A stretch of DNA of 64,000 nucleotides from Ophiura sarsii. Lineage: Eukaryota; Echinodermata; Ophiuroidea; Amphilepidida; Ophiuridae. Numbering within the stretch: position 1 is the stretch's first letter; each line of letters begins with the position of its first letter. Both the position numbers and the translations under genes were made by a program. Below are positions 16,472 through 60,800 of the stretch, piece by piece. The notes beneath the pieces were generated by a model. That model was not told the origin of the DNA. It searched no databases and saw only the letters and a program-made list of their open reading frames with translations. The stretch spans positions 79,049,175-79,113,174 of the forward strand of contig CM069447.1 of NCBI GenBank assembly GCA_035610835.1, in the 5' to 3' direction.

Positions 16472-16956
16472 TAACCTTTTCCACGCGGCTATTGGTTTTA
16501 TATTGTATTGTATAAAACAGATTTTTCAGAAACCTTTCATTCTTTCATTCATTAGTCATAAAGGTGTATTAAAAACTGTTCTTGCAGCAAATACAAAGTA
16601 GCTGAATTACAGACAATTTTACAAATATAATCATTAAAGGAATCAATATAATCTAAAATTAATTACATGAACCCAATCTTCACACTCACCGAATACCACA
16701 AAACAATTAACCAACACTCAAAAACATCCACTACATCCAACACACGCACCCCTACCTTTCCCAACTTTCCATGTCTATATCAAGTATTACGGAACCAATA
16801 CTAGGCATGTTTGCACTTATTTCCATGCTTCTCATGGTGATGCCAAAAATGGTAATTTAATTTAACATTATTGAAACATTTTATAAAGTTTTGCAATGTC
16901 GTCAGACCTGAGACTAAAATTTAGTCTCAGGTCAGACCCTTGCCGCGTGGAAAGTT
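16472..16956 (+). mobile_element. CACTTTCC MITE, copy M2 (interrupted)
   Basis: It starts AACCTTTTCCACGCGGCTAT and ends CTTGCCGCGTGGAAAGTT. At 485 bp it is about twice the family length. Extra sequence (about 16570-16780) sits between the AACCTTTC and CAACTTTCCATGTCTATATC blocks. A 23-bp palindrome with 7-bp flanking repeats is inserted near the right end. Confidence 0.75.
16901..16937. mobile_element. nano-palindrome P1 with 7-bp duplication
   Basis: GTCAGAC (16901-16907) and GTCAGAC (16931-16937) flank a 23-bp palindrome with 11-bp arms CTGAGACTAAA and a single-base centre. Sister MITE copies lack the palindrome at this place. Confidence 0.8.
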
Positions 16957-17040
16957 GAAAAGCTGAAACACATCATTCTGCACTAGAAATTTCTTTTGAC
17001 AAATCTGAAACTTTCCCTGACCAAAATGACCACGGAAGGT

Positions 17041-18308
17041 GTATTATACAACCAATTTCCTTCACATTTAGAGATTTAATTAAACACATATTTGTAGTTT
17101 AGAATACACAAAACGAAATTGTATACACTAGTGTCATCGTCTTTGTAAAACTTTTCCAGATTTAATTTCTGAGGCACGTGGGTCTTCGTTTCACCAGTAT
17201 GTTATTCATAGTTTTGAATATCTGAGCTATCTTCGCGTGTTTTTGTTTCTTTACGGAATAAACGCATATTTCCCTCTCCAGAATATTCTCTCATAGGTGG
17301 CAAGCAGCCACCTGATATTGTTCATAGTCTTGAATAATTGCCTTTTATTTGTTCTTTTTAAGAACGACGCATGCCTTTGATTTTCTATAATAGTCTTTAT
17401 AGTCATTCCGCCTTTATAATTTCATATCAGTTATATATGAATGCAAGATATTATAGTCATGAATATCTAATTGTGTGTTTTTAAGGTCCTTACGGCCGGC
17501 CTTCACACAATCTTACACAACTATCAACCAGCCATTTGTACTTGTCAACGTCTTCATCATTAGAGTTTACTAGTTTGAACATTTTAATTCTTTGTTTATG
17601 TCGGATGTTTTACATAGAGCTTGAGTTTTAGCCGAAGTTCGTTACATAGAGCAAGTTTATACCGTTCTTCTGTACAGAAGCAGGTTCCGCCTAGTGCCCT
17701 CCGCTTTTTTATTAATTTTTTGAACTTTGACCTCTATTGTTCTTATTTTTCACTTGTGTCTCTCTAAGTGTAATTTGATTTTTATTTGTGTGATTGGAGT
17801 ATGAGAAAATAAACCGTGACGTTTTTAATACATTCATGTTTATGGATTTTAAAAATATTTTTTTGTCGAAAAGTAGACGATATATATGTATCTTTTAACA
17901 CCTAAAGTGCGTGGAATTGGTTATTTCCCAACTATCATGGGTCTAATTTTATCTATACAATCTTCTGTCATCTTTCCTTATCATGCTTATTGCAAACAAA
18001 TTAATTAATTAACCCCTCTCTATTCTCTTTAATAATTTCAAGAAAATAAATATAAAATAATAATATTATAATTGTAGGCCGCAACACTGGGCGTTTTGCC
18101 ATGGGATTGGCAACACTGCCTGTATCAACCATAGCCGTAATTTCAGTAAACTACGTTTGTTTTCGTCCATTGACGAATCGAAATGCATTAGTTTTTTCTA
18201 ATAAATCTAATAATTCTATTCTTATGCATTTGTTACCATAAGAATGAATAAAAATGTTTCAAATGTTCAGAAAAGTTACATAAAAGTTACCACTTTTGAA
18301 CGTACAAC
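17041..18308. other. AT-rich interior of the 4.2-kb element, nothing recognised
   Basis: No domain, repeat partner or RNA gene was recognised. Open frames are short and in low-complexity T-rich DNA. Confidence 0.5.
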
Positions 18309-18504
18309 TACACACAGAAAAAAAAATACGTAAGTTATGTAAAAAAATACATAACGTTAGGTGCAATACGAACTCTCGAACAAATAGGTATATTCTACCG
18401 AATTTGTAATTATGTAAAATATACCTAGCAGTTAGGTAAGTAAAATACATAAATATTAGGTAAAATAATAACATAATTTTTTATGTAGTTCTTTTACCTC
18501 ACCA

Positions 18505-18818
18505 GTTAGGTAAGTTAAATACATGATTATTAGGTATAATTTAAAAGTTAAATACATGATTATTAGGTATAATTTAAAAATTAAATACATGAATATTAGG
18601 TATAATTTAAAAGTTAAATACATGATTATTAGGTATAATTTAAAAGTCAAATACGTGATTATTAGGTATAATTTAAAAATTAAATACATGAATATTAGGT
18701 ATACATGAATATTAGGTATAATTTAAAAGTTAAATACATGATTATTAGGTATAATTTAAAAGTTAAATACGTGATTATTAGGTATAATTTAAAAATTAAA
18801 TACATGAATATTAGGTAT
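18505..18818. repeat. 33-bp minisatellite, ~9.5 copies
   Basis: The unit is GTTAAATACATGATTATTAG plus GTATAATTTAAAA, 33 bp. Three variants (GATTATT, CGTGATTATT, GAATATT) alternate in a three-unit, 99-bp higher-order pattern. Because 33 is a multiple of three, both strands show repetitive open frames that are artefacts. Confidence 0.9.
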
Positions 18819-19050
18819 CGACGCCCCTGACCATAGTACATTGATATGCTGAATGGCTGAATGCAGTGCCGCAATCACGCAATGAGTCCCGGGAGTGCAG
18901 TGCAGTATACATGCACGGATAGCGTAACCATAGAAGCTTCCCCAGGTCCGAGCCGTATTACATTACATCATACATGCATGTGCACTTCCTTACAAATAGC
19001 CAAATATAAACAAAAAATCAAGTAATAAGACGTAGAACTCCGGTACTCAC

Positions 19051-19144
19051 CTTTGAATGCTTCAACAAAAGACTGGAGGCCCCAAGCCTTCATTAATTCT
19101 ATCCACTTGGGCTTCAGCTCTTCTGCCTCCGCCATGTCCGCCAT
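19051..19144 (-). CDS. candidate first coding exon (partial, 31 codons)
   Basis: Reading leftward, an ATG at 19144 in good context (GCAAAATGGCGG) opens 31 codons beginning MADMAEAEELKPKW and containing WGLQSFVEAF. They end at AAAG followed by GTGAGT, a consensus splice donor at 19050-19049. The charged start and WGL..F..AF pattern recall the beginning of a SAM-like helical domain, but this is too short to assign. It could be a fragment of a host gene's first exon captured by the surrounding TA element, a genuine first exon disturbed by the element, or chance. No downstream exon was recognised. Confidence 0.35.
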
Positions 19145-19764
19145 TTTGCTCAAGTGTGATCGATCTTGCGCGCAAAATTACATCGCAAAGTGGTATTTTT
19201 GAAAGATTTGTACATTATAAGAATGTAATTCGACACTTTTACCTTTTTAATATGTAAAAAAATACACAAACTATGTAACATTTCCGCTTTGCGTTTAATT
19301 GTGTATTTTTAATATCTACATGCCAACTGGTAAACTGGTTGGACAACAATTCTACCGAAGTTGTGTAGAAACTCGTCGAAAATATACACAACATCGTTAT
19401 ACATATTATTTTTTTACATATCGAGGTCGCGATTTTTCTGTGTGTAGGATCGCTAGGGCAATTATCGATTATTGATTGAAGCACTTAAAAAGGTCACGCT
19501 GGCAAACCGGCTTTGTTACTCACACAATAGAAAAGGAAACCAATTACAGCGGCACTTGAGACCGTGCAGTAAAATGTTTCAAACAGTTTAAGTACTTTGC
19601 GTTAAAATCCTCAAATATTTGCGTACTGAAAATTCAGACACACTGTGAAATTGATGGAAAATACATGCTCAGGTCCTCAAAATCTGTCCTTTAATTCCTC
19701 AATGCATTGAAGATTCCACCTGGGGACGTCAGCAGTATCCGTCGATCCGATTCGACGCCACGCC

Positions 19765-20764
19765 TTAGACATACGTTTACAAACGCTGACATACGTTAGA
19801 CATACGTTGACATACGCTGACATACGTTAGAGCATGGACTAATAAGTCCATGGTTAGAGGTACATTACTCGTCGTAAATTATAGGTTGGACCTATAGATT
19901 TACCCTTCTAGATATTTTAATAGTTATCATCTAGGCTGCGTTTACTTGAACTTGTCCCGCCGTGAACGAAACTCGATTTCTGCAGCGGCATAAGTCACGT
20001 GTTCGTTGTACGCCGAGGATACGCTGAGGATACGTCGAACACGGCAGACATACGCTTCGAATACGTTAAGCATACGTTGGTATACGCTCGCCGATCGCAT
20101 ACGCTGTGATACGCTGTCATAAGTTTGTTATAAGTTAGTGATACGCTATCAATACGTTAGTCATACGCTATGTATACGTCTAATACGCTATGGATACGCT
20201 ATGGATACGTCCATTCCATCACCGAGGTCGACTTTTCCTACGCAATTCGTTGGGAAGTTGGACGTTCTTGGACGTTCTTGGACGTTCTTGGACGTTCTTG
20301 GACACGTTCAGGCCACGTTCAGGCCATACGCTATGGTGTGACAGGGCCTTTAAACTGGCAACACTTGTCCCGCCGTGTACGAAACTCAATTTCTGCAGCG
20401 GCATAAGTCACGTGTTCGTTGAACGCCGAGGATACGCTGTGGATACGTCGAACACGACAGACATACGCTACGAATACGTGAAACATACGTTTGTCATACG
20501 TGAAGCATACGTTGTGATACGCTGTCATAAGTTTGTTATAAGTTAGTGATACGCTATCAATACGTTAGTCATACGCTATGTATACGTTCAATACGCTATG
20601 GATACGTCCATTCCATTACCGACATGACCGATGTCGACTTTTCCTACGCAATTCGTTGGGAAGTTGGACGTTATTGTACTCTGACAATTTTCGAGCTATT
20701 TTTTGAATACGTCGTCATACGTTCAGGCCACGTTCAGGCCATACGCTATGGTGTGACAGGGCCT
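19765..20764. mobile_element. TACGTT-rich mosaic element, right part
   Basis: Two ~413-bp tandem units begin at 19951 and 20364 (CTTGTCCCGCCGTG). Each ends with ATACGCTATGGTGTGACAGG followed by GCCTTT, the inverse of the GCCCTGTCACACCAT end seen at 15308. Inside the first unit a 10-bp GTTCTTGGAC repeat is amplified (20259-20305). This is the continuation of the element split by the 4.2-kb insertion. Short open frames on both strands are by-products. Confidence 0.7.
19826..19859. mobile_element. nano-palindrome P4 with 7-bp duplication
   Basis: GTTAGAG at 19826-19832 and 19853-19859 flanks a 20-bp palindrome with arms CATGGACT and centre AATA. The related TACGTT sequence near 14775 reads CATACGTTAGTGGTACGTTA without the palindrome, so it is an insertion. 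Confidence 0.85.
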
Positions 20765-20828
20765 TTCATTTCTAGATCATGAACATGACTCGTCCAAGAC
20801 GTTTTTATAAATTGTCTTGTATTTTAAT

Positions 20829-20858
20829 ACGTGTTTGTTGTTAAAACAACAAACACGT
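20829..20858. repeat. 30-bp perfect palindrome
   Basis: The arms are ACGTGTTTGTTGTT and its inverse around AA. Unlike the five nano-palindromes, it lacks a flanking 7-bp repeat. Confidence 0.8.
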
Positions 20859-21723: not shown

Positions 21724-22165
21724 TTAAGGGAGCTGTTAGCCATACAGATACAAATGTATCAAGCGCTGTAATCCAAAGAGTGTCAACAATTTGATATTTT
21801 ACCAACGCAATGGTGGACCATGTTTAGAAAACTATCTAAAAACTAAACATTTTTAGTCAACAATTTAAAAACTAAACATTTTTATGAACAAATACAAATA
21901 CTGTTTCTAGAGAATTGTCTTAAGATAATTGTTGGTGCAATTTCGGCATTTTTTACCAAAAACTGATTTGGTTATTTTGTACGGAATTTGTTAGCGTAAC
22001 AAGTGATTTTGTTCGTCACAATTTAAAAATAAGAATTGGATGTTCTGACTAATTTACTTGCCAAACATGTTTACTTTTATATAATATATAGGACCTACAC
22101 CCCATTGATATTTCAAAAGTTACAGCGCTTGATTTTGATACATTTCATATGTTAAGGGTTAACAG
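21724..22165. repeat. inverted-repeat element
   Basis: GATACAAATGTATCAAGCGC, continuing to TGTAA, at 21747-21771 is mirrored by TTACAGCGCTTGATTTTGAT at 22120-22139. TTAAGGG lies at the outer edges. The interior is AT-rich and non-coding. Confidence 0.6.
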
Positions 22166-26501: not shown

Positions 26502-27465
26502 AGAACGCGATTATTTGAAGCAGGAAGTTGGAAAATAACTCGCTGGATTCGCCGATTTGTAATGGCGGGAATTTGTTGTTGTTTGATAAAAATAAATCTA
26601 ACAAAAACAAGTTATGTTTATGATAAAAAAATATATATATATAACAAATACTCTAAATACACGTCTCCAAATATTGTACAGCCTACATTATATGACCAAA
26701 TTTAGCCAAACAGCAACGACCTATATTATATTCTTTAATTATTGGTTTCCAAAAGCAATCTAGTTGGGTTTAATTGCTTTTATTTAAAATGTATGCCATG
26801 AGGTCATGAAATGATTTGGGCCAATTTATCCGTTTCTTGAGCATTACAATATTTGTCTATAGTAATCAAAATGGCTGTGCATCATCATGCAGTACTTACG
26901 AGGACGCAGCAAAACTATGTTCTGTGTAAGTTTATACCATTTGATAATGTTAATTCTGATGATCATTTGAAATACAACATTTTACACCACTAAACAGGGG
27001 CAATACAAATGATAAAATGTTAACAGAAACTTATTGAAACTGCTCAATTCATTACTGATGTGTTACAGTCTGTTTTAAACTAAATCAATATTTTTTGTCT
27101 TATAATGTCCAATATAATATGCAAATGTAATTATGAAAATGTCGACTTCACTATAAATAGAACAGTGCCAATCACTAAGTAGCTTACATGCGTAAGCAGG
27201 TATTACGCACTCGTCCAATATAGAGCAATAAGTTCCGAAAAAGGGCAGTTTTCATCTCTCCAGGCGCAAACATAATCCAAGCGTACGCGTCAACCTTGGC
27301 CATACGCACGCGGCATTGGTGGCATTGGTCGCACGCACGAGTCACGCGTTTGATGCACACGTTATGCGAGGCTTATGTGTGCCCATACTCTTCTGTATTT
27401 ATCCGTGCTGACGTAATAGGCCATCTTGAGCTGTTAAACTACACCACAATATTGTCCTACTTCTT

Positions 27466-27708
27466 AACACTTTCCACGCGGCTTTTAGTTTTACCATATA
27501 CGAAACAGATTTTTCAGAAAACTTTCCTAAATGGCAAGGTCTATCTGAAGTATTACGGAACCAATACTAGGCATGTTTGTACTTATGTCAATGCATTTCT
27601 CATGGTGGTTCCAAATATGGTAATGAAATTCAATAATTTTGACCTTTTTTAAACATTTTGTGAAATTTTGGAATGTCGTCTGCAGCCGCCTGCCGCGTGG
27701 AAAGTGTT
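27466..27708 (+). mobile_element. CACTTTCC MITE, copy M4 (best preserved)
   Basis: AACACTTTCCACGCGGC to GCCGCGTGGAAAGTGTT, 243 bp. The core has CCAATACTAGGCATGTTTGT and CTCATGGTGGTTCCAAATAT. TTAA overlaps both ends, which could be the target duplication or part of the terminal repeat. Confidence 0.9.
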
Positions 27709-27849
27709 AAGCATCCTTCTATCAAGTTCACCTCTAGCTGCAATGCAATATAATCATTACATAAGTGAGGCTAAATTAGCGCAGCAATTTACCTTACTAA
27801 TGTTCATTTTCAACCACCACAAGTACATGTATGTCTCCTCGATTCTCCA

Positions 27850-28340
27850 TTCCAGCAATCACTTCACCGGTTAATTCAATCTCCAATAGAACCTAAGGTA
27901 ATTATAAGACGGCAAAACATCCCTGCATTTTTGTGTGATTCTCTAAGACAGTCAAGTTAACCTAGAAAAGCTAAGGAAAATCACCGCACTCCGCTGAACT
28001 AACCCGTGTTAAATTTAATCCATCGGTAAATCCGTAGGATACCGCGGAGGATGAACGTCGCCAAAATGTCCGCTGATGAGGCACACTATTTGATTACATC
28101 ACAAACTATATACCACGCAAATGATTACAACCGTGGTTATTTTGAAGTACAGCAAGGTTGCCGCAGGAAAGAGGGTACACCGGATCTATTTGATCTGTGC
28201 ATTGAATCGTGGACATGTAATCCGCCACAGCAGGCGCGCATTGATAATATTATTTTGCTTGAAACGGTTAGAATCACAGCACTCTGCACAGCACCAGTGT
28301 TTTGTTTTGGATCATTCTTACTGTGGCCATTGTGAAAATT
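27850..28340 (+). repeat. dispersed repeat R, copy R2
   Basis: It contains the R landmarks AACCCGTGTTAAATTTAATC, GGATACCGCGGAGGATGAAC and CCGGATCTATTTGATCTG. The 94-codon open stretch from 28051 (MNVAKMSADEA...) shares its frame with R3 and mostly with R1. Nothing identifies a function. Confidence 0.7.
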
Positions 28341-30606
28341 TGAATATTTGACTTTGACGGTGTAGAATAAAATATAGCGCCCTTTCTACGTTTAAAGGCA
28401 GTTCCTCTTTAATTTGTTTTCAGAAGCGTACACATGTATCCTCTACCTAAACAAGGTATTAAATGGAATTCAATTTCATTTTTGTTTTGAGAAATCTCTC
28501 AATGCCCCTGTAACTTGGCGCACACGTTATAATTGAAGAACGTTGTTAACTAATTATTAACATGATTAAGGGCCGTATTATCGTACCAAACACAGTTTTA
28601 GCATAATGAGCCGTGACTAAATAAACGCGAGGTTATATTTGAATTAACAAAACCCGTATTTGCACTGCTTGAATCTCGTTCTCAGAGTGGTCGTGCGTTC
28701 ACTGTATACAGAAATATATAGTTATCGACCAAATTCCTCAAATGCATATTCACGTCAGCTTACATCTGGTACTGTGAGGGAGTATGTGTACACTTCGTGC
28801 ACGAATTTAGTTAAACGCTACCACCATACCCATATTTAAAGTTTAGACGCTTTTCAGTGGGGTTAGACACATGTTTAAGTTTAACAAACACATTGCGTTT
28901 TAACAATTTGTCTAAAGTTAATGTTAAGCGCTTGTTTAGCTTAAAACCGCGTTAAAGTGCACATGACAATACGGCCCTATGTATAACCCTGGAATCGATT
29001 GACTTCTTAGCTAACTTCTTTTACAATTTAGAGTCCTCCATACCTGTTTCACGACATCAACTTCACAATGGCGCCGCCATAAAGTGACCCGATATAATTG
29101 GTAGTACTGTTTGGCTGATTTGTGGTTTGGCATGTTTGGAAAAGAAGAAGAACAAAATCCGAAATCTTATTTCTTAAATCCAGCCGAACAAAGATAAAAT
29201 CGGGCATCTGTAATAATTGGATTAGAGTGTACGCCGTTATTCAATAGTTAAATTTAAAAGATGTTATAAGAACAAAATCACAAATCTTGTTCGGTTTTAA
29301 AATGTACACTTTTATCTAAAGGACCATAAATCACGTTTTTTAAAACCAATTTTAACCAATTTAAATATTTTGAAAAAAAAGCTAATGAGACAGCCTCTCT
29401 CCCAGAATAAATAATATGAGAATTGTTTGCACACATTTATAGAAATAAAATCCCAAAGTTGAGTGCATGTTTTTTTTAATCACCCTGTTCACAAAATGGT
29501 GAACTCGAGACCAAAAAGAGAAAAACTCAAATAGATACAGCTACTGTCTTTTTTAATTTCAACTATGCATTTACTACATAGCATCATGTATTAAATACTG
29601 AGTATATCATTTTATATACGTATTATGCATCATTAAGCGTTATTTCTCAATAGGTAGTCCTTTATAAACCTGGGCAATACCTGAGTTATAAATACGACCC
29701 CATTGTGTGCAACATGCATGTTATAAAAATGCAACGAACGACTATTTAGAAACATACCAATCCGACCTGCTTATTATAAAATGACGAGATCTAGAGTACT
29801 TATTGCATACACCTTACACAATGTTTTACCTTTGAGGGCTAAATACAGTTCTATCTGCGGGCCATGTCATCTCAACGGCAGCAATGTCAGACCCGACGAT
29901 ATTGGTGGTGAACGTGTTCCTAATTTGGTCACGACAGAACTCATTACTACCCGGCCCACTTTGGCATACATAGCCGAAAGCATGCCGTAGCTATTTGAGA
30001 TTATTTGCCACTTGAACTTTGGAAGGGAAAGTCGGGGCATCTGTTACTTATTCCTACCTGTTCGTTACATATGAATCGTCTTCGCTACATTCTTTGATAA
30101 CCCTAAAGCAGGAATAAAATATATTTAAAAAAAGAAGGGTGATCAAACATGTCAAATGGAAACTAACAGTAGTCTAGAAGGGGTATGGATGGACGGTGTT
30201 TTTGTAGCAGATGAGCTGTACTAAGAAATGAAAGGGTGTTGGAGTGTGGGAAGTGTTTGGTACGAATTAAGAAGTAGGAGTACATACCAATTTATGGCAA
30301 TATAAAATGTTGGTATAGTGAGACATATGCAAAGCAAAGTATGGAGGAATATGATGTCGGTAGCATGTATGATTCTTATTAGGAAAAATGAAGAAAAAGA
30401 AAAATTTGTCTTATATCCATGTAGGCCTACATACATAGCCAATAATAAGGACATTTAGATAGTCACTTAATGTATCCAGTATAGCTACATACAGCTAGAT
30501 GGGTCCGGTGGGTCTATTTTGGTTTTAAAAAACACGAAGATTTTAACTTTCCCACTCTGTCACACGTGGGGCTCCTTTAAAATTAATATTCGCCTTCAGT
30601 TTTCAA

Positions 30607-31400: not shown

Positions 31401-32312
31401 CACTCTTAGAAGGTCAGGATCAAATATGAGACGAAAAGGATCAATTTTGATCCAGAAGCGGTATCACATATGAGCTTACCCTTTCCGGATCAAAGTGATC
31501 CGACAAGCAGGATCAAAAAGTTTGATCCGAAATGGGATCAAATATTTCTGTCAAATGATACTGAAACGGATCAAAATAATGATCCTTAATCGGATGTACC
31601 TGTAGCTTATGATCCTACTCCAGGATCAAACTGAATCAAAGAAAAAGTGAAAACATAGGGGGTCATCGGGTGAGAGATTGTAAAAACAAGCATGCATGCA
31701 AGGGTCTTTCGGTGACACCGGGCCAAAAAAAGGGGGGTATTTTTGATGGAGCCTGGTGTGAAACCTAATATTGATTGAATGCCCCCACCCCCGGGTGCAC
31801 ACTGCAGACTATATATCGAGTGCAGTAAGCTTACTACATCGTGTAGGCCTAGTACATCGCAGTGATCGTGACATTTTGTGAGGAGCATTTTGACCGAAAA
31901 TCGTACTGATGGCACTGGTCAGGTACAAGAAATTTGTTCACAAGAATAGAGCATGTTCAAACATAAAAAATAAAACTAACATTTTACAGATTAGACTGGA
32001 TAACTTACCGCGGTATTTCACCCTTGTTTCAACTGTGGCGACCGATTTCAAAAGATCGTCTGCTTGTCGTCTATCGGTTTGCGAAAGAGTGACGTCAGTC
32101 ACTCATTGACCAATGAACTGTTTCATCGAATTGATCCGGAAATCAGATCAAAGTTGATCAAGGTGAATTTGATCCGTTTGTTGATATCTATCTGGAAACG
32201 GATCAAAACGATCCGAAAACGGATCAAAACGATCCGAAAATGATCCTTAAAGGATCAAAACAAAGTGAGCCGGAAATCTACTCATGTATTTGATCCTGAC
32301 CTTCTAAGAGTG
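31401..32312. mobile_element. TA-flanked element with GATC-rich arms and promoter-like cargo
   Basis: TA-CACTCTTAGAAGGTCAGG and CCTGACCTTCTAAGAGTG-TA bound 912 bp. Copy 1 has the intact site AAGTAGCTTAC. Both arms repeat GGATCAAA/TTTGATCC words. The centre lacks them and carries, on the minus strand, a CCAAT box, a perfect CRE and a splice donor. A minus-strand open stretch (31607-31915) is not recognised. Confidence 0.85.
32009..32114 (-). promoter_or_regulatory. promoter-like module: CCAAT box, CRE, 5' exon end with splice donor
   Basis: Reading leftward: ATTGG (inverse CCAAT, 32114-32110), then TGACGTCA (32097-32090, consensus CREB/ATF octamer). About 80 bp later ACCGCG is followed by GTAAGT, a consensus splice donor just left of 32009. 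A possible acceptor (ACCTGACCAG) lies near 31915. The arrangement resembles a host promoter with a short 5' untranslated exon, here inside a transposable element. No transcription evidence. Confidence 0.35.
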
Positions 32313-32588
32313 TAGCTTACATGCGTAAGCGGGTATTACGCACTCGTCTAATATAAAGCAATACATTCCGAAAAAGGGCAGTGTTTATCTCTCCGGGCGC
32401 AAAAATAAATCAAACGTACGCGCCAACCTTGGCCATACACACGCAACTTTGGTCGCATGCACGAGTCACGCGTTTGATGCACACGTTATGCGAGGCTTAT
32501 GTGTGCCCATACACCTCTGTATTTATCCGCGCTGACGTAATAGGCAATCTTGAGCTGTTAAACTACAATATTGTCCTATATTCTTCTT

Positions 32589-32832
32589 AACGCTTTCCAC
32601 GCGGCTATTATTTTTACCATACACAAAACAGATTTTTCAGAAACCTTTCATAATTTCAAAGTCTATCTCAAAGATTACTGACAAACACTAGGCATGTTTG
32701 TACTTATTTCAATGCATTTCTCATGGTGATTCCAAATAATATGGTAATGAAATACAGTAATGTTGACATTTTTGAAACATTTTGTGAAATTTTGGAATGT
32801 CGTCTGCAGCTGCCTGCCGCGTGGAAAGTGCT
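32589..32832 (+). mobile_element. CACTTTCC MITE, copy M5
   Basis: Paralogue of M4 within the duplication: AACGCTTTCCACGCGGC to GCCGCGTGGAAAGTGCT, 244 bp. Confidence 0.9.
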
Positions 32833-32969
32833 AATCATCCTTCTATCAAGTTCACCTCTATAGCTGCAGCATGATCATTACATAAGTGAGGCTAAATTAG
32901 CGCAGCAATTTACCTTACTAATGTTCATTTTCAACTACCACAGGTACATGTATGTCTCCTCGATTCTTC

Positions 32970-33470
32970 ATTCCATCAATCACTTCAACGGTTAATTCAA
33001 TCTCAAATAGAACCTAAGGTAATTATAAGACCGCAAAACATCCCTGCATTTTTTTTATGATTCTCTAAGACAGTCAAGTTAACCTAGAAAAGCTAAGGAA
33101 AATCACCGCACTACGCTGAACTAACCCGTGTTAAATTTAATCCATCGGTAAATCCGTAGGATACCGCGGAGGATGAACGTCGCCAAAATGTCCGCTGATG
33201 AGGCGAAATATTTGATTACATCACAAACTATATACCACGCGAATGATTACAACCGTGGTTATTTTAAAGTACAGCAAGGTTGCCGCAGGAAAGAGGGTAC
33301 ACCGGATCTATTTGATCTGTGCATTGAATCGTGGACATGTAATCCGCCACAGCAGGCGCGCATTGATAATATTATTTTGCTTGAAACGGTTAGAATCACA
33401 GCACTCTGCACAGCACCAGTGTTTTGTTTTGGATCATTCTTACTGTGGCCATTGTGAAAATTTGAATATT
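32970..33470 (+). repeat. dispersed repeat R, copy R3
   Basis: Near-identical to R2, with the same open stretch from 33173. The few differences include one that changes His to Lys. It is a product of the block duplication, not an independent insertion. Confidence 0.75.
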
Positions 33471-33654
33471 TGACTTTGACGGTGTAGAATAAAATATAGC
33501 GCCCTTTCTACGTTTAAAGGCAGTTCCTCCTTAGTTTGTTTTCAGAAGCTTACACATGTATCCTCTACCTAAACAAGGTATTAAATGGAATTCAATTTCA
33601 ATTTTTGTTTTGAGAAATCTCTCAATGCCCCTGTAACTTGGCGCACACGTTATA

Positions 33655-34262
33655 AAGGGTTCAACAAAAGAAAGTATACCACTTTGTTTATGTCATTTTG
33701 AGTAACTTTCAATTTGTTTGTGACCAAACAGGCTAAATAGGCATTTAGATGAATCTTTTAGGCATAATTTGATACCAAATTTGCCCCCTAACAACAAAGA
33801 TAAACCATGATTAGCACCATTTAAAGGAAAATATCCCATTTTAAAAAGTCGCATTTCCAATACACAGCACGAGAAGATTTGGTTAATCTGTCCATGTTCT
33901 CCCCATCCATAACGTTCCTTTACATTCAAACCCTTCACCCATGCATCAGTTTACATTTGAATTAGCCCGCGCATTGAGGGATAAGCGCGGTGATCAGTAC
34001 GGGATAAACACGGCATGTGTGTGTTAACAATTGGCCCTTTCTTCTCGTGCTGTGTATTGGAAATGCGACTTTTGAAAATGGGATATTTTCCTTTAAATGG
34101 TGCTAATCATGGTTTATCTTTGTTGTTAGGGGGCAAATGTGGTATCAAATTATGCCTAAACGATTCATCTAAATGCCTATCTAGCCTGTTTGGACAAAAA
34201 CAAATTGAAAATTACTCAAAATGACATAGGCAAAGTGGTATACTTTCTTTTGTTGAACCCTT
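33655..34262. mobile_element. near-complete palindromic TA element
   Basis: TA-AAGGGTTCAACAAAAGAAAG and its inverse CTTTCTTTTGTTGAACCCTT-TA bound 608 bp. The two ~240-bp arms are inverted copies around a ~100-bp centre. Copy 1 has the intact site CGTTATAATTG. The matching open frames in each arm (33693-33938 minus, 34015-34224 plus) are the same sequence read twice, and no domain is recognised. Confidence 0.9.
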
Positions 34263-35348
34263 TAATTGAAGAACGTTGTTAACTAATTATTAACATGATT
34301 AAGGGCCGTATTATCGTACCAAACACAGTTTTAGCATAATGAGCCGTGACTAAATAAACGTGAGGTTATATTTGAATTAACAAAACCCGCATTTGCACTG
34401 TTTGAATCTCGTTCTCAGAGTGGTCGTGCGTTCACTGTATACAGAAATATATAGTTATCGACTAAATTCCTCAAATGCATATTCACGTCAGCTTACATCT
34501 GGTACTGTGAGGGAGTATGTGTACACTTCGTGCACAAATTTAGTTAAACGCTACCACCATACCCATATTTAAAGTTTAGACACTTTTCAGTGAGTTTAAC
34601 AAATATATTGCGTTATAACAATATGTCTAAAGTTAATGTTAAGCGCTTGTTTAGCTTAAAACCGCGTTAAAGTGCATACGGCCCTATGTATAACCCTGGA
34701 ATCGATTGACTTCACAGCTAACTTCTTTTACAATTTAGAGTCCTCCATGCCATACCTGTTTCACGACATCAACTTCACAATGGCGCCGCCATAAAGTGAC
34801 CCGATATAAGTGGTAGTACTGTTTGGCTGATTTGTGGTTTGGCATGTTTGGAAAAGAAGAAGAACGAAATCCGAAATATTATTTCTTAAATCCAGCCGAA
34901 CAAAGATAAAATCGGGCATCTGTAATAATTGGATTAGAGTGTACGCCGTTATTCAATAGTTAAATTTAAAAGATGTTATTAGAACAAAATCACAAATCTT
35001 GTTCGGTTTTAAAATGTACACGTTTATCTAAAGGACCATAAATCACGTTTTTTAAAAGCAATTTTAACCAATTTAAATATTTTGAAAAAAAAAGCTAATG
35101 AGACAGCCTCTCTCCCAGAATAAATAATATGAGAATTGTTTGCACACATTTATAGAAATAAAATCCCAAAGTTGAGTGCATGTTTTTTTTAATCACCCTG
35201 TTCACAAAATGGTGAACTCGAGACCAAAAAAGAGAAAAAATCAAATAGATACAGCTACTGTCTTTTTTAATTTCAACTATGCATTTACTACATAGCATCA
35301 TGTATTAAATACTGAGTATATCATTGAACGTATTAATTATGCATCATT

Positions 35349-35818
35349 CATTACTTCATGAATAATCGCGATAGCTGCGTACAAGTGCGTTCCAATCAAA
35401 TTAACGCCTCACGCCCCTAAACTGAATATTCAATGAGTTATGAGGAAACACGATTAAAGCTTATTTCTGATTGGTTGAATGATAAAAATGTTAATGAGGG
35501 GATGACCCGAATTAGACTGTTTCAATAACTAAGAAGGGGTGGACAAAATAAACAGAAAACTAATTAATTATTAGCAAGATTATATCGGTACAAATCAACG
35601 ATTTGGATAAAATATGCATTCAGTAATGAATGAGAATAATGACTGCTTAACAACTGTTTCGTGAATTTGTTTTGAAATCCTAGGGTTTTGTTCTGGTCAT
35701 TCGGAATTGTCCCTCGGGGGCTGCGCCCCTCGGGACAATTCCCCAGACCAGTACAAAAACCTCTGATTTTAAAACAAATTCACGAAAACAGTTGTTACGC
35801 AGTCATTATTCTCTAATT
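35349..35818. mobile_element. foldback element with nested hairpin
   Basis: Absent from copy 1 near 29632. The right half is a long stem: AATGACTGC, AACAACTGTTTCGTGAATTT, GTTTT pairs with its inverse ending GCAGTCATT. At its tip is a GC-rich hairpin GAATTGTCCCTCGGGG / CCCCTCGGGACAATTC (about 35693-35740). A related AATAATCGCGATAGCTGCGT end lies at the left. Boundaries are approximate. Confidence 0.75.
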
Positions 35819-36446
35819 AAACGCCATTTGTCATGTATTTCTCAATAGGTAGTCCTTTATAAACCTGGGCAATACCTGAGTTATAAATACGACCCTATTG
35901 TGTGCAACATGCATGTTATATAAATGCAACGACTATTTAGAAAAATACCAATCCGACCTGCTTATTATAAAATGACGAGATCTAGAGTACTTATTGCATA
36001 CACCTTACACAATGTTTTACCTTTGAGGGCTAAATACAGTTCTATCTGCGGGCCATGTCATCATAACGGCAACAATGTCAGACCCGACGATATTGGTGAA
36101 CGTGTTCCTAATTTGGTCATGACAGAACTCATTATTACCCGACCCACTTTGGCATACATAGCCGAAAGCATGCCGTAGCTACATTTGAGATTATTTGCCA
36201 CTTGAACTTAGGAAGGGAAAGTCGGGGCATCTGTTACTTATTCCTACCTGTTCGTTACATATGAATTGTCTTCGCTACATTCTTGGATAACCCTAAAGCA
36301 GGAATAAAATATCTTTTAAAAAAGAAGGGGTGATCAAACATGTCAAATGGAAACTAACAGTAGTCTAGAAGGGGTATGGAAGGACGGTGTTTCTGTAGCA
36401 GATCAGCTGTACTATAGAACTGAAAGGGTGTTGTGGGAAGTGTTTG

Positions 36447-36490
36447 GTACGAACATGAAAGTAACAGGTCTGTTACTTTCATGGTACGAA
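36447..36490. mobile_element. nano-palindrome P3 with 7-bp duplication and known empty site
   Basis: GTACGAA at 36447-36453 and 36484-36490 flanks a 30-bp palindrome with perfect 14-bp arms CATGAAAGTAACAG and centre GT. Copy 1 has a single GTACGAA at 30260-30266 in the same context, so insertion plus target duplication is directly visible. Confidence 0.92.
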
Positions 36491-36683
36491 TTTAGAAGTA
36501 GGAGTACATACCAATTTATGGCAATATAAATGTTGGTATAGTGAGACATATGCAAAGCAAGATATGGAGGAATATGCTGTCGGTAGCATGTATGATTCTT
36601 ATTAAGAAAAATACAAATTTGTATTATATACATGTAGGCCTACTTACATAGCCAATAATAAGGACATTTAGATAGTCACTTAA

Positions 36684-39880: not shown

Positions 39881-39901
39881 ATATATGACACGTAGCGTTA
39901 A

Positions 39902-40610
39902 GGGGGCTGTGCACCTTCAGGTACAGCCTCCGTAAAACTGCCGTAACTTCTTTATTATTCATTAAATCTATATAAAAGTATACATTTTCTTGCAGAAAAG
40001 GGTTCAATGAATCCAACCATGATCATGAAATTGACCATTTTGGGAGAAAATTATAAAAAACACGTTTTTTGACCCATTTTAGGTTTGGAAAAGATAACTC
40101 AAAATATAGTTTGTTAAATTTTATCATACTAGTTTAATTATATTCCTCATGCAATTCCCTAGGAATACGGGTTTTTTTTAAAATTTTACTTTATTATTTT
40201 TTGAATTATCGAACAAAAAGTGCCAAAAAATATGATTTTTTACCAAAAAACGTGATTTTCACGATTTTGGAGGTAAACAAACAGGTTTTTTGGCACTTTT
40301 TGGTCTGTAATTCAAAAAATAATAAAGTAAAAATTAAAAAAAAAAACGATTCCTAGGGAATTGCATGAGGAATATAATTAAACTAGTATGATAAAATTTA
40401 ACAAAATATATTTTGAGTTATTTTTTCCAAACCTAAAATGGGTCAAAAAACATGTTTTTTATAATTTTCTCCAAAATGGTCAATTTCATGATCATAGTTG
40501 GATTCATTGAACCCTTTCCTGCAAAAAAATGTATACTTTTATTAAGATTAAATGAATAATGAAGAAGTTACGGCAGTTTTACGGAGGCTATGCGAAGGTG
40601 CACATCCCCC
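39902..40610. mobile_element. near-complete palindromic TTAA element
   Basis: TTAA-GGGGGCTGTGCACCTTC and GAAGGTGCACATCCCCC-TTAA bound 709 bp. The halves are inverted copies along ~340 bp with a short centre near 40258 (AAAACGTGATTTTCACG). Such structures usually derive from a DNA transposon by deletion of everything between its ends. No coding sequence. Confidence 0.9.
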
Positions 40611-40803
40611 TTAACCTACGAATGATTAAAGTAAAACTCAATATGCTGTTAGATTTTGAAGACCTATTGCTCCTATAATTGTACACAGTTGTTGCCAATA
40701 TTTAATTTTAAAGTTATATGTTCATAAAAAGGCAAATGTAGGAAGCTATTGTCTCGTATTCGGATTTTAATTCGCATAATTTGATCATATAACATTGTAA
40801 TAT

Positions 40804-46512: not shown

Positions 46513-46673
46513 CAAATACTACATGGTTAGAGGGGAAATAGTGCAATCTATTTTCCCGAGGTACTGGCTACAGGCCTACCACCCCGAACCCGGAGGGTGA
46601 GGGGTGGTAGGCCTGTAGCCAGTACCGAGGGAAAAAAGTGTGCCCTATTGCCCCGATCATACCATGTAGTATT
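46513..46673. repeat. 161-bp hairpin
   Basis: ATACTACATGGT at the outside, then GGTACTGGCTACAGGCCTAC, CACCCC in the stem, mirrored around GAACCCGGAGGGTGA. Part of the lower stem (GGGGAAATAG / CTATTGCCCC) is imperfect. Confidence 0.85.
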
Positions 46674-46675
46674 TG

Positions 46676-51589: not shown

Positions 51590-53490
51590 TTACACAATTC
51601 TTATTGTCCTACTTCAGCCTGTCCTACTTCTTTAAGCACCTTCGTACCGTTCCTTTTCATCATTGAAGCTACATTTATCTTTCTAGTATTTACTTACAGT
51701 AGCTGCATCCTTTCAATTGTTATCTACAGCCTGGTTATCTATATACCAATCACTTTACCGGATAATGATCTTAAATATAACCTACCTACGGTTTAAAACC
51801 ACAACACGTGTGAGCATAATGCACTGCGATAGTCGAGAAAATAGTTAGCAAATCATTGCATTGAGCTAAGCTAACCGATGTTAATCAATCGAAAAATCCG
51901 TAAGATACCGCGGAGGATGACGTCACCAACTGTCCGACGCCAATAGCCATGGTTATTCTAGAATAAAATAGGGTTGCCGCGGGAAACAGTCCGACGCCGA
52001 TAGCCATGGTTATTCTAGAATAAAATAGAGTTGCCGCAGCAACTGTCCGACGCCAATAGCCATGGTTATTCTAGAATAAAATAGGGTTGCCGCAGCAACT
52101 GTCCGACGCCAATAGCCATGGTTATTCTAGAATAAAATAGAGTTGCCGCAGCAACTGTCCGACGCCAATAGCCATGGTTATTCTAGAATAAAATAGGGTT
52201 GCCGCAGGAAACAGTCCGACGCCAATAGCCATGGTTATTCTAGAATAAAATAGGGTTGCCGCAGGAAACAGTCCGACGCCAATAGCCATGGTTATTCTAG
52301 AATAAAATAGGGTTGCCGCGGGAAACAGTCCGACGCCAATAGCCATGGTTATTCTAGAATAAAATAGAGTTGCCGCAGCAACTGTCCGACGCCAATAGCC
52401 ATGGTTATTCTAGAATAAAATAGGGTTGCCGCAGGAAACAGTCCGACGCCAATAGCCATGGTTATTCTAGAATAAAATAGGGTTGCCGCAGGAAACAGTC
52501 CGACGCCAATAGCCATGGTTATTCTAGAATAAAATAGGGTTGCCGCGGGAAACAGTCCGACGCCAATAGCCATGGTTATTCTAGAATAAAATAGAGTTGC
52601 CGCAGCAACTGTCCGACGCCAATAGCCATGGTTATTCTAGAATAAAATAGGGTTGCCGCAGGAAACAGTCCGACGCCAATAGCCATGGTTATTCTAGAAT
52701 AAAATAGGGTTGCCGCAGGAAACAGTCCGACGCCAATAGCCATGGTTATTCTAGAATAAAATAGGGTTGCCGCGGGAAACAGTCCGACGCCAATAGCCAT
52801 GGTTATTCTAGAATAAAATAGGGTTGCCGCGGGAAACAGTCCGACGCCAATAGCCATGGTTATTCTAGAATAAAATAGGGTTGCCGCAGGAAACAGTCCG
52901 ACGCCAATAGCCATGGTTATTCTAGAATAAAATAGGGTTGCCGCGGGAAACAGTCCGACGCCAATAGCCATGGTTATTCTAGAATAAAATAGGGTTGCCG
53001 CGGGAAACAGTCCGACGCCAATAGCCATGGTTATTCTAGAATAAAATAGGGTTGCCGCAGGAAACAGTCCGACGCCAATAGCCATGGTTATTCTAGAATA
53101 AAATAGGGTTGCCGCGGGAAACAGTCCGACGCCAATAGCCATGGTTATTCTAGAATAAAATAGGGTTGCCGCGGGAACTGTCCGACGCCAATAGCCATGG
53201 TTATTCTAGAATAAAATAGGGTTGCCGCGGGAACTGTCCGACGCCAATAGCCATGGTTATTCTAGAATAAAATAGGGTTGCCGCAGGAACTGTCCGACGC
53301 CAATAGCCGTGGTTATTCTAGAATAAAATAGGGTTGCCGCAGCAACTGTCCGACGCCAATAGCCATGGTTATTCTAGAATAAAATAGGGTTGCCGCGGGA
53401 AACAGTGCAGTACATGCCGGAAATGTTTGATCTCTGCAGTGAATCGTGGATACGTAATCCACTACTGCAGGGCGCACGGAGAATATATAT
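51590..53490 (+). repeat. dispersed repeat R, copy R4, with expanded core
   Basis: The left flank (CACTGCGATAGTCGAG, AAAAATCCGTAAGATACCGC, GGAGGATGA) and right flank (GTGAATCGTGGATACGTAAT, CCA, GCAGGGCGCACGGAGAA) match R1. The region between, one ~57-bp stretch in R1 (GCCGTGGTTATTCTAGACTA ... GGTTGCCGCGGGAA), is here a 26-copy array. Confidence 0.85.
51935..53406. repeat. 57-bp minisatellite, 26 copies, with higher-order structure
   Basis: The unit is CCGACGCCAATAGCCATGGT, TATTCTAGAATAAAATAGGG, TTGCCGCGGGAAACAGT (57 bp; a 56-bp variant ends AACTGT). By linker variants, units 4-7, 8-11 and 12-15 are the same four-unit block (~227 bp) repeated three times. Units 16-18 and 19-21 form a three-unit block repeated twice. 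Minus-strand frames of 74 and 188 codons (19-residue periods) are a consequence of the period being a multiple of three. Confidence 0.95.
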
Positions 53491-54986: not shown

Positions 54987-55044
54987 GTGAAACCTGAGAC
55001 TACTAATATACCAAGGTATATTAGGTATTAGTCTCAGGTGAAAC
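54987..55044. mobile_element. nano-palindrome P2 with 7-bp duplication
   Basis: GTGAAAC at 54987-54993 and 55038-55044 flanks a 44-bp near-palindrome. Outer arms CTGAGACTA/TAGTCTCAG are the same as in P1, with inner arms CTAATATACC/GGTATATTAG. Confidence 0.85.
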
Positions 55045-57410: not shown

Positions 57411-57618
57411 CGTCGGGGAGGGGTGGGGGAGGTGGGCATTTTAAGTGGGAAACCTATGTATAATGATTTATAGAATCATAAGAATTTGCTATTTGCATAA
57501 AACATTCTAAATTAGGCCTATGTTAAAATAGCATGGCAAATATTCTACTAATGAACCCTATACACAACAAACCGACACCCGGAAGGCCCATTAAATGGTG
57601 AGCAAAACTTTCATACAG

Positions 57619-57680
57619 GCTCCCTCGCTATCACAATTGGTAGAGTGTCAGACTTGCACGCACACGCAGATTTGATCCTT
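57619..57680 (+). pseudogene. tRNA-like relic (A box, weak B box)
   Basis: GCTATCACAATTGGTAGAGT followed by GTCAGACTTGCA closely resembles a tRNA D-arm and anticodon 5' stem. GATTTGATCC follows where the B box would be. No acceptor stem pairs, so it is a SINE head or tRNA pseudogene. Confidence 0.4.
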
Positions 57681-57855
57681 TTTTCTCACCCGATAGTTAA
57701 ATGATTGCCAAAAACATGCCGGGTAGTTTATAGAGTGTCCTAAAAATGCTTACCAATCGCCGCGAATGCGAGAGGGACCGGGTTCTAGACAGTGTATTTG
57801 TTAATTCAATTCTCGCAAAATGTATTGTAAAAATAGTTCCCTAAAAAGCTGTTGA

Positions 57856-57882
57856 GGGGGGGGGGGGGGGGGGGGGGGGGGG
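57856..57882. repeat. 27-bp poly-G run
   Basis: Pure G run, with a further G8 run ~60 bp downstream. Confidence 0.95.
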
Positions 57883-58673
57883 TGAACCTGACATATTTTG
57901 TTAGTAATTAAGGGGAATCCGAAATTTGTGATAGTTAAGTAGGGGGGGGGAATCAAAAAAAAATGATACAAAATGGATAATGACCCACCCCCGCCCCCTG
58001 CCGTGTTAAATGATCTCTCCCTTTGAGCGGCACATCCCCGTATACCGTATTAGGTGAGTACCCCCTCCCGGGATGGAAACACGTGTGCAATCGACAATAG
58101 AATCGAATATTTAAACCCCGACATTAACTCTCAATCAAAACTTTTTTTCTTTCATTTTGGCCAGGTTTGGCCGGCTATGCAAGTTTTGACTGAAAATTAA
58201 TTCTAACAATTGAACATTTATTTAACTGTTTTCGAAATCAAGTGATTTCAACGTGGTTGTTCATGTATGATTGTATATAATAAGTAGCGCCAGCAATAAT
58301 AAAAAGGATACCAAGTCAACATTATAACGTTTATCTCGTCTATTCTTTAAATATCCGAATGAAATGCAATCATCATTTTCATGTAATTATATTTGACATT
58401 TACTAGTTCACGGGAGCATGTTTTGTCTTGATAGGCTTAATGAAAAATAACTGACCGTTTTACAATAATAGAGCGGGAGGAGAATTTTATCACTTGGAGA
58501 AACCAGAAAACAAAAACAAGAAACAAATAAATTTGTATTGTGTGACGAACATTTTATACCCTTTTAATTAATTTAAAATAAAGAGTCATTAATAATGTTT
58601 GAATGTACCAACGTTAGAATAACAGCCCGTATTGATAGACGAGAGAATAACCGTTGCTTATTTCAATAATCTG

Positions 58674-58967
58674 AACACTTTCCACGTGGTAGTCGTCTGC
58701 AGACGACAGTCGTACTCAAAAAGTTCACTAAAATGTTTAAACAATGTGAACATTATTAATTTGATGTCACGGTCACCATGATATTCGGAATCATTATGAG
58801 AAGTGCATTTTGCACAGTGATAAATGGCGCGTGATATCATTCACTATTTAGAAAGTCTATCGGCGTAAAGATCAACTCTGAGTTCATTTTACCAATTACT
58901 TAGTCAAATATTTTTTATTTCAAAATCTGTTTTGTATGGTAAAACCAATAGTCGCGTGGAAAGTGTT
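58674..58967 (-). mobile_element. CACTTTCC MITE, copy M7
   Basis: AACACTTTCCACGTGGTAGT to GTCGCGTGGAAAGTGTT, 294 bp, reversed relative to M4 (GTCGTCTGCAGACGAC lies at its left). The interior is diverged. Confidence 0.85.
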
Positions 58968-60126
58968 AAGAAGAATTAAAACTCTCATAAGATAAGAAAA
59001 TAGGCCTGAGTAACTTAATTCTGTACATTTTAAAGTTAGCTTCGGAACTCTTCTTAAAGTTAAGAAGGAAATATATTGTTCTCAAAGCGTTACATGATTG
59101 GTCGTTGGAAAAGAATAAATAGAGAGTGGGAGATGGAGATTTAAAGAAAAGGGTAAAAGGAGTTGTGTAACCTTGATTTCAACTGTTTCTGTACATTAAA
59201 TGATCAGACGACCACAAGTGCCCCCCCCCCCCCCACCCCCCCCCCCCCCTCCCCCCTCCCCCCATCCATGTATAGGTAAAAACGATAACAACAATCTACA
59301 TACTTCATGTCATTTTCTACGGTTTTTTTCCCGGCTGAAAGGTCATAAGACGAGTGATGCCATGTGTGCGCCGTACTCAGCACAAACAAGTTGAGCGCAC
59401 AATCGACTTGAGTTGCGAATAAATATTCAAATGAAGGAATTATTAAGACAAACGTGATCACATGTTATAGGGGTTTGAGTTACTGAGTAGGAGCACGGTT
59501 CACAAATTTCATTTGCACCTAAGCTTACCATGTGTGAACTATAGGTATAGATATGTGGTACGGTATGTCATGTAGGCATATACTTTAGCGTGCTATAGTA
59601 TCTACTGAAGATAGGCCTAGCTAATGTTTCAATGTCCAATCTTCTGATAGAGATTGATCAATGTTGCTATATAAATTATAATACCATAGGCCCTTATAAT
59701 AAGCATGGTAAGAAAGTGAAAAGATATCCGTTTGTCCTTCATCTACAGATTGTTTATTGTTATCAGGCACTATTAAACCATATTGCATATAAATGGAGAG
59801 TGGGAGATGGAGAATTAAAGAAAAGTGGAGAAGGACTTGTAACTTTGATTTCAACTGACTTACTGTTTCTGTACATTAACTTATAATCAGATGACCACAA
59901 GTGCCCTCCCCATCCATGTATTATACTTAGGTAAAAACGGTAAAAACGATATGAATATCACGGGTTACTCCGGATGAAAGGTCATAATACGATAAAGACG
60001 CCATTGTGGTGTACGGTGTGCGCCGTATTCAGCACACACGAGTTGAGCGCACAATCCACTTGAGATGCGAATAAATGTTCAAATGAAGAAATTATTCAGA
60101 CAAACGTGATCTCATGTCAGGCATTA

Positions 60127-60800
60127 GCCCCCCAAAAAAATGTTTGTTTGTCCTTAAGAGGGTCCGAAAAAGTTTTTTTTTTTTTAAATTGTGTTTGGGA
60201 ATATAAAATCGGCATGAATACTGTGAATTGTAGTCGACCAAACACAAAACACGTTACTTTGATAGTATTGAACTCTTTTTCATGAGTTTGTTAGAATTGT
60301 ACTTTAATACTTAGGCCTACAACTGTTCAACCATGGATAAGTCCATGGTTCAACTAACAAAATGAACATGTTGTCATGTCGGTCGCCGCCATTTATTTTG
60401 ATTGAAAATTTTCAGAAAGTAAAACAACGTAGTGTTTAAGTTATGTTAGAAATGTATACGTGAAAGTAGTGCTGTTATAGATACAAAATTTTGTATAAAT
60501 ACCAATATACGACTGGCATTCCCGATGGCGTTGTTATTCAATATAAATTATTTTGATACTTCTGGATCTGGATCTGGATCATTATACTCCAATTAAGCAG
60601 GTTCTGAGCATTGGGGATGGTGTTTATAAAGACCAGATTCATTATAGCGTACGAAATCAGGAATAAAACGGTCCGTTTGGCCATTTAAATTGCTCAAAAA
60701 GTGGTTTTAAAAAAATAATAGAAAATAAAAAATAATACGGTCGGCACCAGGTACACGGTCGGTCGGACGTGGACAAACAAACAACTTTTTTTGTTGGGCC
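60127..60800. mobile_element. TTA-flanked element with GCCC-A7 ends
   Basis: TTA-GCCCCCCAAAAAAATG, then TTTGTTTGTCC, and the inverse GGACAAACAAACAACTTTTT ... GGGCC-TTA bound 674 bp. Copy A has the unoccupied site at about 59465. The TTA duplication suggests PIF/Harbinger type, inferred. It hosts nano-palindrome P5. Confidence 0.75.
60325..60354. mobile_element. nano-palindrome P5 with 7-bp duplication
   Basis: GTTCAAC at 60325-60331 and 60348-60354 flanks a 16-bp palindrome with arms CATGGA and centre TAAG. It is very similar to P4 (arms CATGGACT). Confidence 0.8.

What the first reader, a model, noticed from the sequence alone, without database searches (positions are those of the whole stretch)
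16901..60354. Five nano-palindromes, each flanked by an exact 7-bp duplication of form GTNNRAN
Seen directly: P1 16901-16937 (GTCAGAC), P2 54987-55044 (GTGAAAC), P3 36447-36490 (GTACGAA), P4 19826-19859 (GTTAGAG), P5 60325-60354 (GTTCAAC). Each is a bare palindrome of 16-44 bp starting CTGAG or CATG, with the 7-mer repeated exactly on both sides. P1 and P2 share arms CTGAGACTA; P4 and P5 share CATGGA. P3 and P4 have related uninterrupted sites in the window (30260-30266 and near 14775). All five 7-mers begin GT and have A at position 6. Elements this small with a fixed-length, sequence-biased duplication are not a standard transposon class. They may be minimal substrates of a transposase, or the product of hairpin capture at a staggered break.
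Basis: partly seen in the sequence, partly recalled or inferred. Interest (0 to 1): 0.88.

Follow-up and report, generated by a model that had tools for sequence, protein, structure and literature searches.

The report
Scars left by departed jumping genes
Five tiny palindromes, each framed by the same seven letters on both sides, look like healed cuts where P-type transposons once sat and then left, rather than a new kind of miniature mobile element.

Summary
All five palindromes (16, 20, 23, 30, 44 bp) lie at the stated places between exact 7-bp copies of GTNNRAN. In the strict scan, 5 were found at 7 bp against a mean of 0.025 in 40 shuffles; no other length from 5 to 11 exceeded the shuffle maximum. 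The minimal-substrate reading is not supported. The anatomy matches excision footprints of P-superfamily transposons: P transposase cuts 17 nt inside the element, so each flank keeps its target duplication plus a tail of terminal inverted repeat, and end joining leaves duplication, repeat, inverted repeat, duplication. Of 66 isolates in one Drosophila table (PMC2895639 Table 1), 40 have this layout, palindromes 16-44 bp; other tables there hold some longer ones. The duplication resembles that of the P-superfamily element 1360 (7 bp, GTTNAAC); P5 is GTTCAAC. P4/P5 and P1/P2 share arms but not centres, as independent repairs would. P3 has an uninterrupted paralogous site.

The parts
16901..16907 (.). 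P1 left target-site duplication GTCAGAC
   Evidence: exact 7-mer
16908..16930 (.). P1 footprint palindrome, 23 bp: arms CTGAGACTAAA, centre A
16931..16937 (.). P1 right target-site duplication GTCAGAC (the next base is C, so the bare direct repeat is 8)
54987..54993 (.). P2 left target-site duplication GTGAAAC
54994..55037 (.). P2 footprint, 44 bp: arms CTGAGACTA, 26-bp centre containing a nested inverted repeat CTAATATACC/GGTATATTAG (read as templated filler)
   Evidence: the filler reading is inference
55038..55044 (.). P2 right target-site duplication GTGAAAC
36447..36453 (.). P3 left target-site duplication GTACGAA (the preceding G also matches)
36454..36483 (.). P3 footprint palindrome, 30 bp: arms CATGAAAGTAACAG, centre GT
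36484..36490 (.). P3 right target-site duplication GTACGAA
30260..30266 (+). single GTACGAA at the uninterrupted paralogous site of P3, within the match 30014-30470
19826..19832 (.). P4 left target-site duplication GTTAGAG
19833..19852 (.). P4 footprint palindrome, 20 bp: arms CATGGACT, centre AATA
19853..19859 (.). P4 right target-site duplication GTTAGAG
60325..60331 (.). P5 left target-site duplication GTTCAAC (fits GTTNAAC)
60332..60347 (.). P5 footprint palindrome, 16 bp: arms CATGGA, centre TAAG; right arm read inward CATGGACTTA as in P4
60348..60354 (.). P5 right target-site duplication GTTCAAC
27522..27705 (+). diverged paralog of the P1 locus without the palindrome (78%)
32643..32829 (+). 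second diverged paralog of the P1 locus without the palindrome (77%)

Best explanation
Each nano-palindrome is an excision footprint of a P-superfamily cut-and-paste transposon that makes 7-bp target duplications (1360- or Galileo-like). Shown here: an exact 7-bp duplication biased to GT...AC, framing a palindrome of at most 44 bp whose perfect arms are 6-14 nt; arms shared and centres differing between sites; an uninterrupted paralog at P3. Inferred: a full-length element inserted and duplicated 7 bp; its transposase later cut at the element border on one strand and about 17 nt inside on the other; both flanks kept the duplication plus a single-stranded tail of the terminal inverted repeat; end joining, by short microhomology, blunt joining or templated filler synthesis (polymerase theta type), joined the two tails. 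Because the tails come from inverted copies of one sequence, the joint is a palindrome. P1/P2 would come from one family (ends CTGAGACTA), P4/P5 from another (CATGGACTTA), P3 from a third (CATGAAAGTAACAG).
For: Strict scan: excess beyond every shuffle only at k=7; looser scan 6 against at most 3 in 600 shuffles. 1360, of the P superfamily, has 7-bp duplications in 274 of 279 sites, motif GTTNAAC; Galileo has 7 bp, GTANTAC or GTATTAC; P itself has 8 bp, GTCCGGAC. Here GT stands at 8 of 10 half-sites and T at position 2 in 10 of 10 (counted by eye from the five 7-mers; binomial 6e-9 and 9e-6; post hoc). P transposase makes an unusually long 17-nt staggered cut (PMC7776569 passages). Published junctions after P excision in Rad51-deficient flies: 40 of the 66 isolates in Table 1 of PMC2895639 are duplication-palindrome(arm >=5)-duplication, palindrome 16-44 bp, median 30, arms 7-18; P1-P5 are 16, 20, 23, 30 and 44 bp. 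Large insertions there are templated repeats, which the P2 centre resembles. Same arms with different centres. P3 empty paralog. Two of three arm families begin CATG, as does the Drosophila P tail.
Against: CTGAG ends do not start CA, as P termini do (recalled). The arms are not more similar to the Drosophila P tail or the zebrafish Pdre2 end than shuffled arms with the first four bases kept (0.14-0.96 of shuffles score as well). The largest published class, long microhomology (20 of 66), was not seen here, but my scans would miss it. Tables 2 and 3 of that paper were not scored; Table 2 holds insertions of 42 and 49 nt, so the 16-44 bp agreement concerns Table 1 alone. Excision by zebrafish THAP9 gave larger flanking deletions in fly cells (PMC10983969 passages), so clean footprints are not assured outside flies. 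In the broadest scan the window exceeds shuffles at every k from 4 to 9. The duplication is formally 8 bp at P1 and P3 without the symmetry argument. Five sites only; species not identified.
Confidence: 0.87

Rival explanations
1. Nano-transposons: the palindromes themselves are mobile elements of 16-44 bp inserted whole by a transposase that duplicates 7 bp.
For: Exact fixed-length duplication with sequence bias and shared arms; P3 has an empty paralog.
Against: Sites sharing arms have different centres and lengths. Drosophila P elements carry 31-bp terminal repeats plus internal transposase-binding sites (PMC7776569 passages), for which a 16-44 bp element has no room. The layout is already explained by published excision products.
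Confidence: 0.04
2. Excision footprints, but of another superfamily that leaves several nucleotides of its ends (for example an uncharacterised hAT-like or Mutator-like element with 7-bp duplications).
For: GT...AC duplications are not unique to P: hobo (hAT) has GTNCGNAC. The CTGAG ends are unlike P ends as recalled.
Against: hobo duplications are 8 bp (1,196 of 1,198 sites), and from general knowledge hAT, Tc1/mariner and piggyBac excisions leave few or no element bases. The review read in passages names the long 17-nt staggered cut as a feature that distinguishes P from other characterised cut-and-paste transposons.
Confidence: 0.07
3. Chance or satellite artefact: palindromes in an A+T-rich, repeat-dense sequence that happen to have matching flanks.
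For: P4 lies at the edge of a 10-bp satellite; the extra hit at 21850 is such an artefact; the window exceeds block shuffles at every k from 4 to 9 in the broadest scan.
Against: 5 against 0.025 expected at k=7 in the strict scan; 0 of 600 shuffles exceed 3 in the looser scan, against 6; the sequence bias and shared arms were not part of the selection rule.
Confidence: 0.01
4. Break repair by foldback synthesis or oligonucleotide capture at ordinary staggered breaks, with no transposon.
For: Foldback and templated inverted insertions at breaks are described (abstract start of PMC11724301 seen in the listing); the P2 centre looks templated.
Against: Would not be expected to give a fixed 7-bp GT...AC duplication, or the same arm sequences at loci 38 and 40 kb apart.
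Confidence: 0.01

Closest known systems
Drosophila P-element excision footprints (P{wa} end-joining junctions, PMC2895639)
   Same: Target duplication on both sides, inverted terminal-repeat tails joined into a palindrome (16-44 bp in Table 1), with microhomology, blunt or filler centres.
   Different: Duplication 8 bp there, 7 here; induced in laboratory flies there, standing in a genome here; here the parent elements are unseen.
1360 element of the P superfamily, Drosophila
   Same: 7-bp duplication with motif GTTNAAC (PMC3276498 passages); P5 fits it exactly and the others partly.
   Different: A transposon with insertion data, not a footprint; its terminal sequence was not compared here.
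Galileo (P superfamily)
   Same: 7-bp duplication with GT...AC (GTANTAC, GTATTAC; PMC4168063 passages).
   Different: Long terminal repeats; stronger target consensus than seen here; footprints not described in the passages read.
Zebrafish Pdre2 / THAP9 P-like elements (PMC10983969 passages)
   Same: P-like elements outside insects whose transposase excises them in cell assays; ends start CAT.
   Different: 8-bp duplication; larger flanking deletions on excision in fly cells; no significant similarity of the ends to these arms.

Membership tests
P-superfamily excision footprint | Fixed-length target duplication intact on both sides (7 or 8 bp) | tested here: met
   7 bp at 5 of 5; in the strict scan only k=7 passes every shuffle; 7/8 ambiguity at P1 and P3 without symmetry. 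Sites without an intact duplication were excluded by the search rule
P-superfamily excision footprint | GT...AC target motif | tested here: met
   GT at 8 of 10 half-sites, T at position 2 in 10 of 10 (counted, binomials, post hoc); compare GTTNAAC and GTANTAC
P-superfamily excision footprint | Palindrome built from at most about 17 nt of each terminal repeat, with variable centre | tested here: met
   Perfect arms 6-14 nt, lengths 16-44; 40 of 66 Table 1 isolates have the layout, 16-44 bp, arms 7-18
P-superfamily excision footprint | Arms are the ends of a full-length transposon present in the genome or its relatives | tested here: inconclusive
P-superfamily excision footprint | Parent encodes a P/THAP9-type transposase | not tested
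   No parent element in hand; Pfam scan of 10 of 206 window ORFs showed none
Self-mobile nano-element (MITE-like) | Multiple copies with the same whole sequence | tested here: not met
   Two pairs share arms, but centres and lengths differ; window only
Self-mobile nano-element (MITE-like) | Empty paralogous sites with one copy of the 7-mer | tested here: inconclusive
   Met at P3, weak at P4, diverged at P1, no spanning match for P2 and P5; footprints predict the same

The most novel reading that the evidence does not exclude
The genome carries a dense archive of P-type excision scars (5 per 64 kb here, about 78 per Mb if typical), including scars of families with non-standard CTGAG ends whose parent transposons are now rare or lost, so the scars alone record extinct transposons and how the germline repaired their breaks.
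Probability: 0.3. Interest if true: 0.6.

Novelty: new member of a known kind. Interest (0 to 1): 0.42.

Why it matters
If the density holds genome-wide, short duplication-palindrome-duplication motifs are a simple, annotation-free signature of past P-type transposon excision. They would let one count departures, which insertion counts miss, recover terminal repeats of families with no surviving copies, and read natural end-joining outcomes (microhomology against templated filler). It also warns annotators not to catalogue such scars as a new class of tiny transposon.

Tried and rejected
Searching the window for parent elements; exact 7-bp duplication, terminal repeat with the first 6 bases exact and at most 2 mismatches in 12, up to 12 kb; 5 rows, P1-P4 and 61667-62057 (P5 fails this rule); duplications of 5-9 bp with at most one mismatch, C-starting 9-bp exact repeat, 46-8000 bp; 14, 12, 4, 2 and 1 rows for k=5-9, none with the three end types except P2 itself. 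The one exact 7-bp case longer than the footprints in these two scans, 61667-62057, has CAGGGGCGGACTG ends and looks hAT-like (recalled). A lone CTGAGACTA at 43395 has no GT...AC flank.

One-sided or non-palindromic footprints: maximal 7- and 8-bp direct repeats with GT or AC ends and spacers of 3-60 bp were listed (29 at 7 bp, 19 at 8 bp). Apart from P1, P2, P4 and P5 none carried the known ends at the spacer's edge; this list was not compared with shuffles (P3 drops out because its bare repeat is extended by a G).

Similarity of the arms to the Drosophila P tail and zebrafish Pdre2 end: not better than shuffled arms, so not used as evidence. The element at 2802-3517 with GTCCGGAC near its ends looked like a P insertion at first; the inverted repeat runs through and past that 8-mer, so it is not a duplication.

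Species: Pfam on 10 ORFs gave only matches below cut-off; a protein search with one short ORF found two unnamed short relatives. Left unresolved; that the window is from a eukaryote is inference from its satellites and lack of long ORFs. Rfam: no match at gathering score.

Full report
What is there. All five 7-mers fit GTNNRAN. Perfect arms are 11, 9, 14, 8 and 6 nt, with centres of 1, 26, 2, 4 and 4 nt.

Is it more than chance. A strict scan for a k-mer, a C-starting palindrome of 12-100 bp with arms of at least 5, and the same k-mer gave 5 hits at k=7 against 0.025 on average (maximum 1) in 40 Markov shuffles; the counts at k=5, 6, 8, 9, 10 and 11 were 5, 2, 0, 0, 0 and 0 against 2.35, 0.7, 0.05, 0, 0 and 0. 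With arms of at least 6 and one mismatch allowed in the k-mer, k=5, 6 and 7 gave 14, 7 and 6 against 7.0, 2.1 and 0.675, and only k=7 passed the shuffle maximum. A scan with exact k-mers, any starting base and arms of at least 6 gave 6 at k=7; the sixth, 21850-21871, is A/T-rich and inside a tandem repeat. In 600 shuffles the count never passed 3. Replacing the second flank by its reverse or complement gave none at k=7, though complements gave 39 at k=5 against 11 direct. The broadest scan, palindromes up to 400 bp against 20 block shuffles, exceeds the shuffles at every k from 4 to 9, which shows that the window is rich in repeats of other kinds; the claim of a peak at 7 therefore rests on the short, strict class. 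GT stands at 8 of 10 half-sites and T at position 2 at 10 of 10 (counted from the five 7-mers); the binomial figures are 6e-9 and 9e-6, but the motif was chosen after looking. One caution: at P1 and P3 the bare direct repeat is 8 bp, because a flanking base equals the palindrome's end base; only symmetry fixes the boundary at 7.

Before and after. P3 lies in one copy of a diverged duplication (27179-30470 against 32312-36683, in four direct pieces of 90.6-94.7% identity). The other copy has the same flanks with a single GTACGAA and no palindrome (30014-30470, 92% over 459 columns). P1 has two uninterrupted paralogs at 77-78% whose 7-mer region has diverged, and P4 only a weak satellite match. 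P2 and P5 have no spanning match in the window.

What makes such a structure. P-element transposase makes an unusually long 17-nt staggered cut at each end (PMC7776569, passages). The donor ends carry the target duplication plus 17-nt 3' tails of the terminal inverted repeat (PMC2895639, passages and sections 7 and 9 read). When these ends are joined, the product is duplication, repeat, optional filler, inverted repeat, duplication. I scored the 66 isolates listed in Table 1 of that paper (its Figure 6 legend counts 68 junctions; Rad51-deficient flies) with a like rule, an intact 8-bp duplication and arms of at least 5: 40 of 66 have the layout, with palindromes of 16 to 44 bp, median 30, and arms of 7 to 18. 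The five in this window are 16, 20, 23, 30 and 44 bp. The other 26 isolates have shorter arms or lost part of the duplication; 20 of them are long-microhomology joins, a class my scans cannot see. Tables 2 and 3 were read but not scored; Table 2 has two insertions of 42 and 49 nt, so the published range is wider than Table 1 alone.

Why footprints and not tiny elements. P4 and P5 both have CATGGACTTA when read in from the right, but are 20 and 16 bp with centres AATA and TAAG; P1 and P2 share CTGAGACTA but have 1-bp and 26-bp centres. Copies of one element would be expected to share their centre; independent repair events would not. The P2 centre holds a nested inverted repeat and near-copies of its own tail, like the templated insertions seen after P excision; this reading is inference. 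A 16-bp element also has no room for the 31-bp terminal repeats and internal binding sites described for P.

Which transposons. Among the families tabulated in PMC3276498, the P-superfamily element 1360 has a 7-bp duplication (274 of 279 sites) with motif GTTNAAC, P itself 8 bp with GTCCGGAC, and hobo (hAT) 8 bp with GTNCGNAC (passages). Galileo, also P superfamily, makes mostly 7 bp with GTANTAC or GTATTAC (PMC4168063, PMC2775673, passages). P5 fits GTTNAAC exactly. The parent elements are therefore most likely 1360/Galileo-like members of the P superfamily.

What could not be done. The species was not identified.

Novelty. Excision footprints of this form are known from laboratory flies. Paper searches aimed at P-type or palindromic excision footprints (listings of 20 of 43, 17 of 17, 20 of 31 and 3 of 3 papers) showed no title or abstract start reporting a genomic survey of them, which is weak evidence because listings were cut and most subscription journals are not held. 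I file it as a new member of a known kind: natural, standing footprints of 7-bp P-type transposons at five per 64 kb.

Noticed in passing
61667-62057: 391-bp inverted-repeat element with ends CAGGGGCGGACTG and exact flanking CTATGGG; contains 18-bp GGTCACAAAATTTCGCAC repeats; looks hAT-like (recalled).
   Followed up: no
51928-53406: 57-bp satellite, about 26 copies, 96% matches; one stretch is open for 209 aa as a repeated peptide.
   Followed up: no
27179-30470 and 32312-36683: Diverged segmental duplication (four direct pieces, 90.6-94.7% identical); the second copy holds P3 and an inverted repeat (33653-34264) that lies between aligned pieces and has no counterpart in the first.
   Followed up: partly
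39891-40620: 730-bp palindrome-like stretch, 90.6% self-complementary.
   Followed up: no
46513-46675: Near-palindrome of about 163 bp, 82% self-complementary, with an inner 63-bp palindrome (46562-46624) that has 24-nt perfect arms.
   Followed up: no
2802-3517: Inverted-repeat element whose ends include ATCAGTCCGGACCGATTTCCC; a GTCCGGAC-like 8-mer near each end mimics a P-element target duplication but belongs to the inverted repeat.
   Followed up: yes
18971-19177 (-): Short ORF (PKWIELMKAWGLQSFVEA...) with two unnamed relatives in the protein collection, 86% and 71% identical; possibly a repeated exon.
   Followed up: partly
14400-15160 and 19765-20600: Arrays of degenerate 10-11 bp TACGTT/GATACGCTAT satellites; P4 sits at the edge of one.
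   Followed up: no
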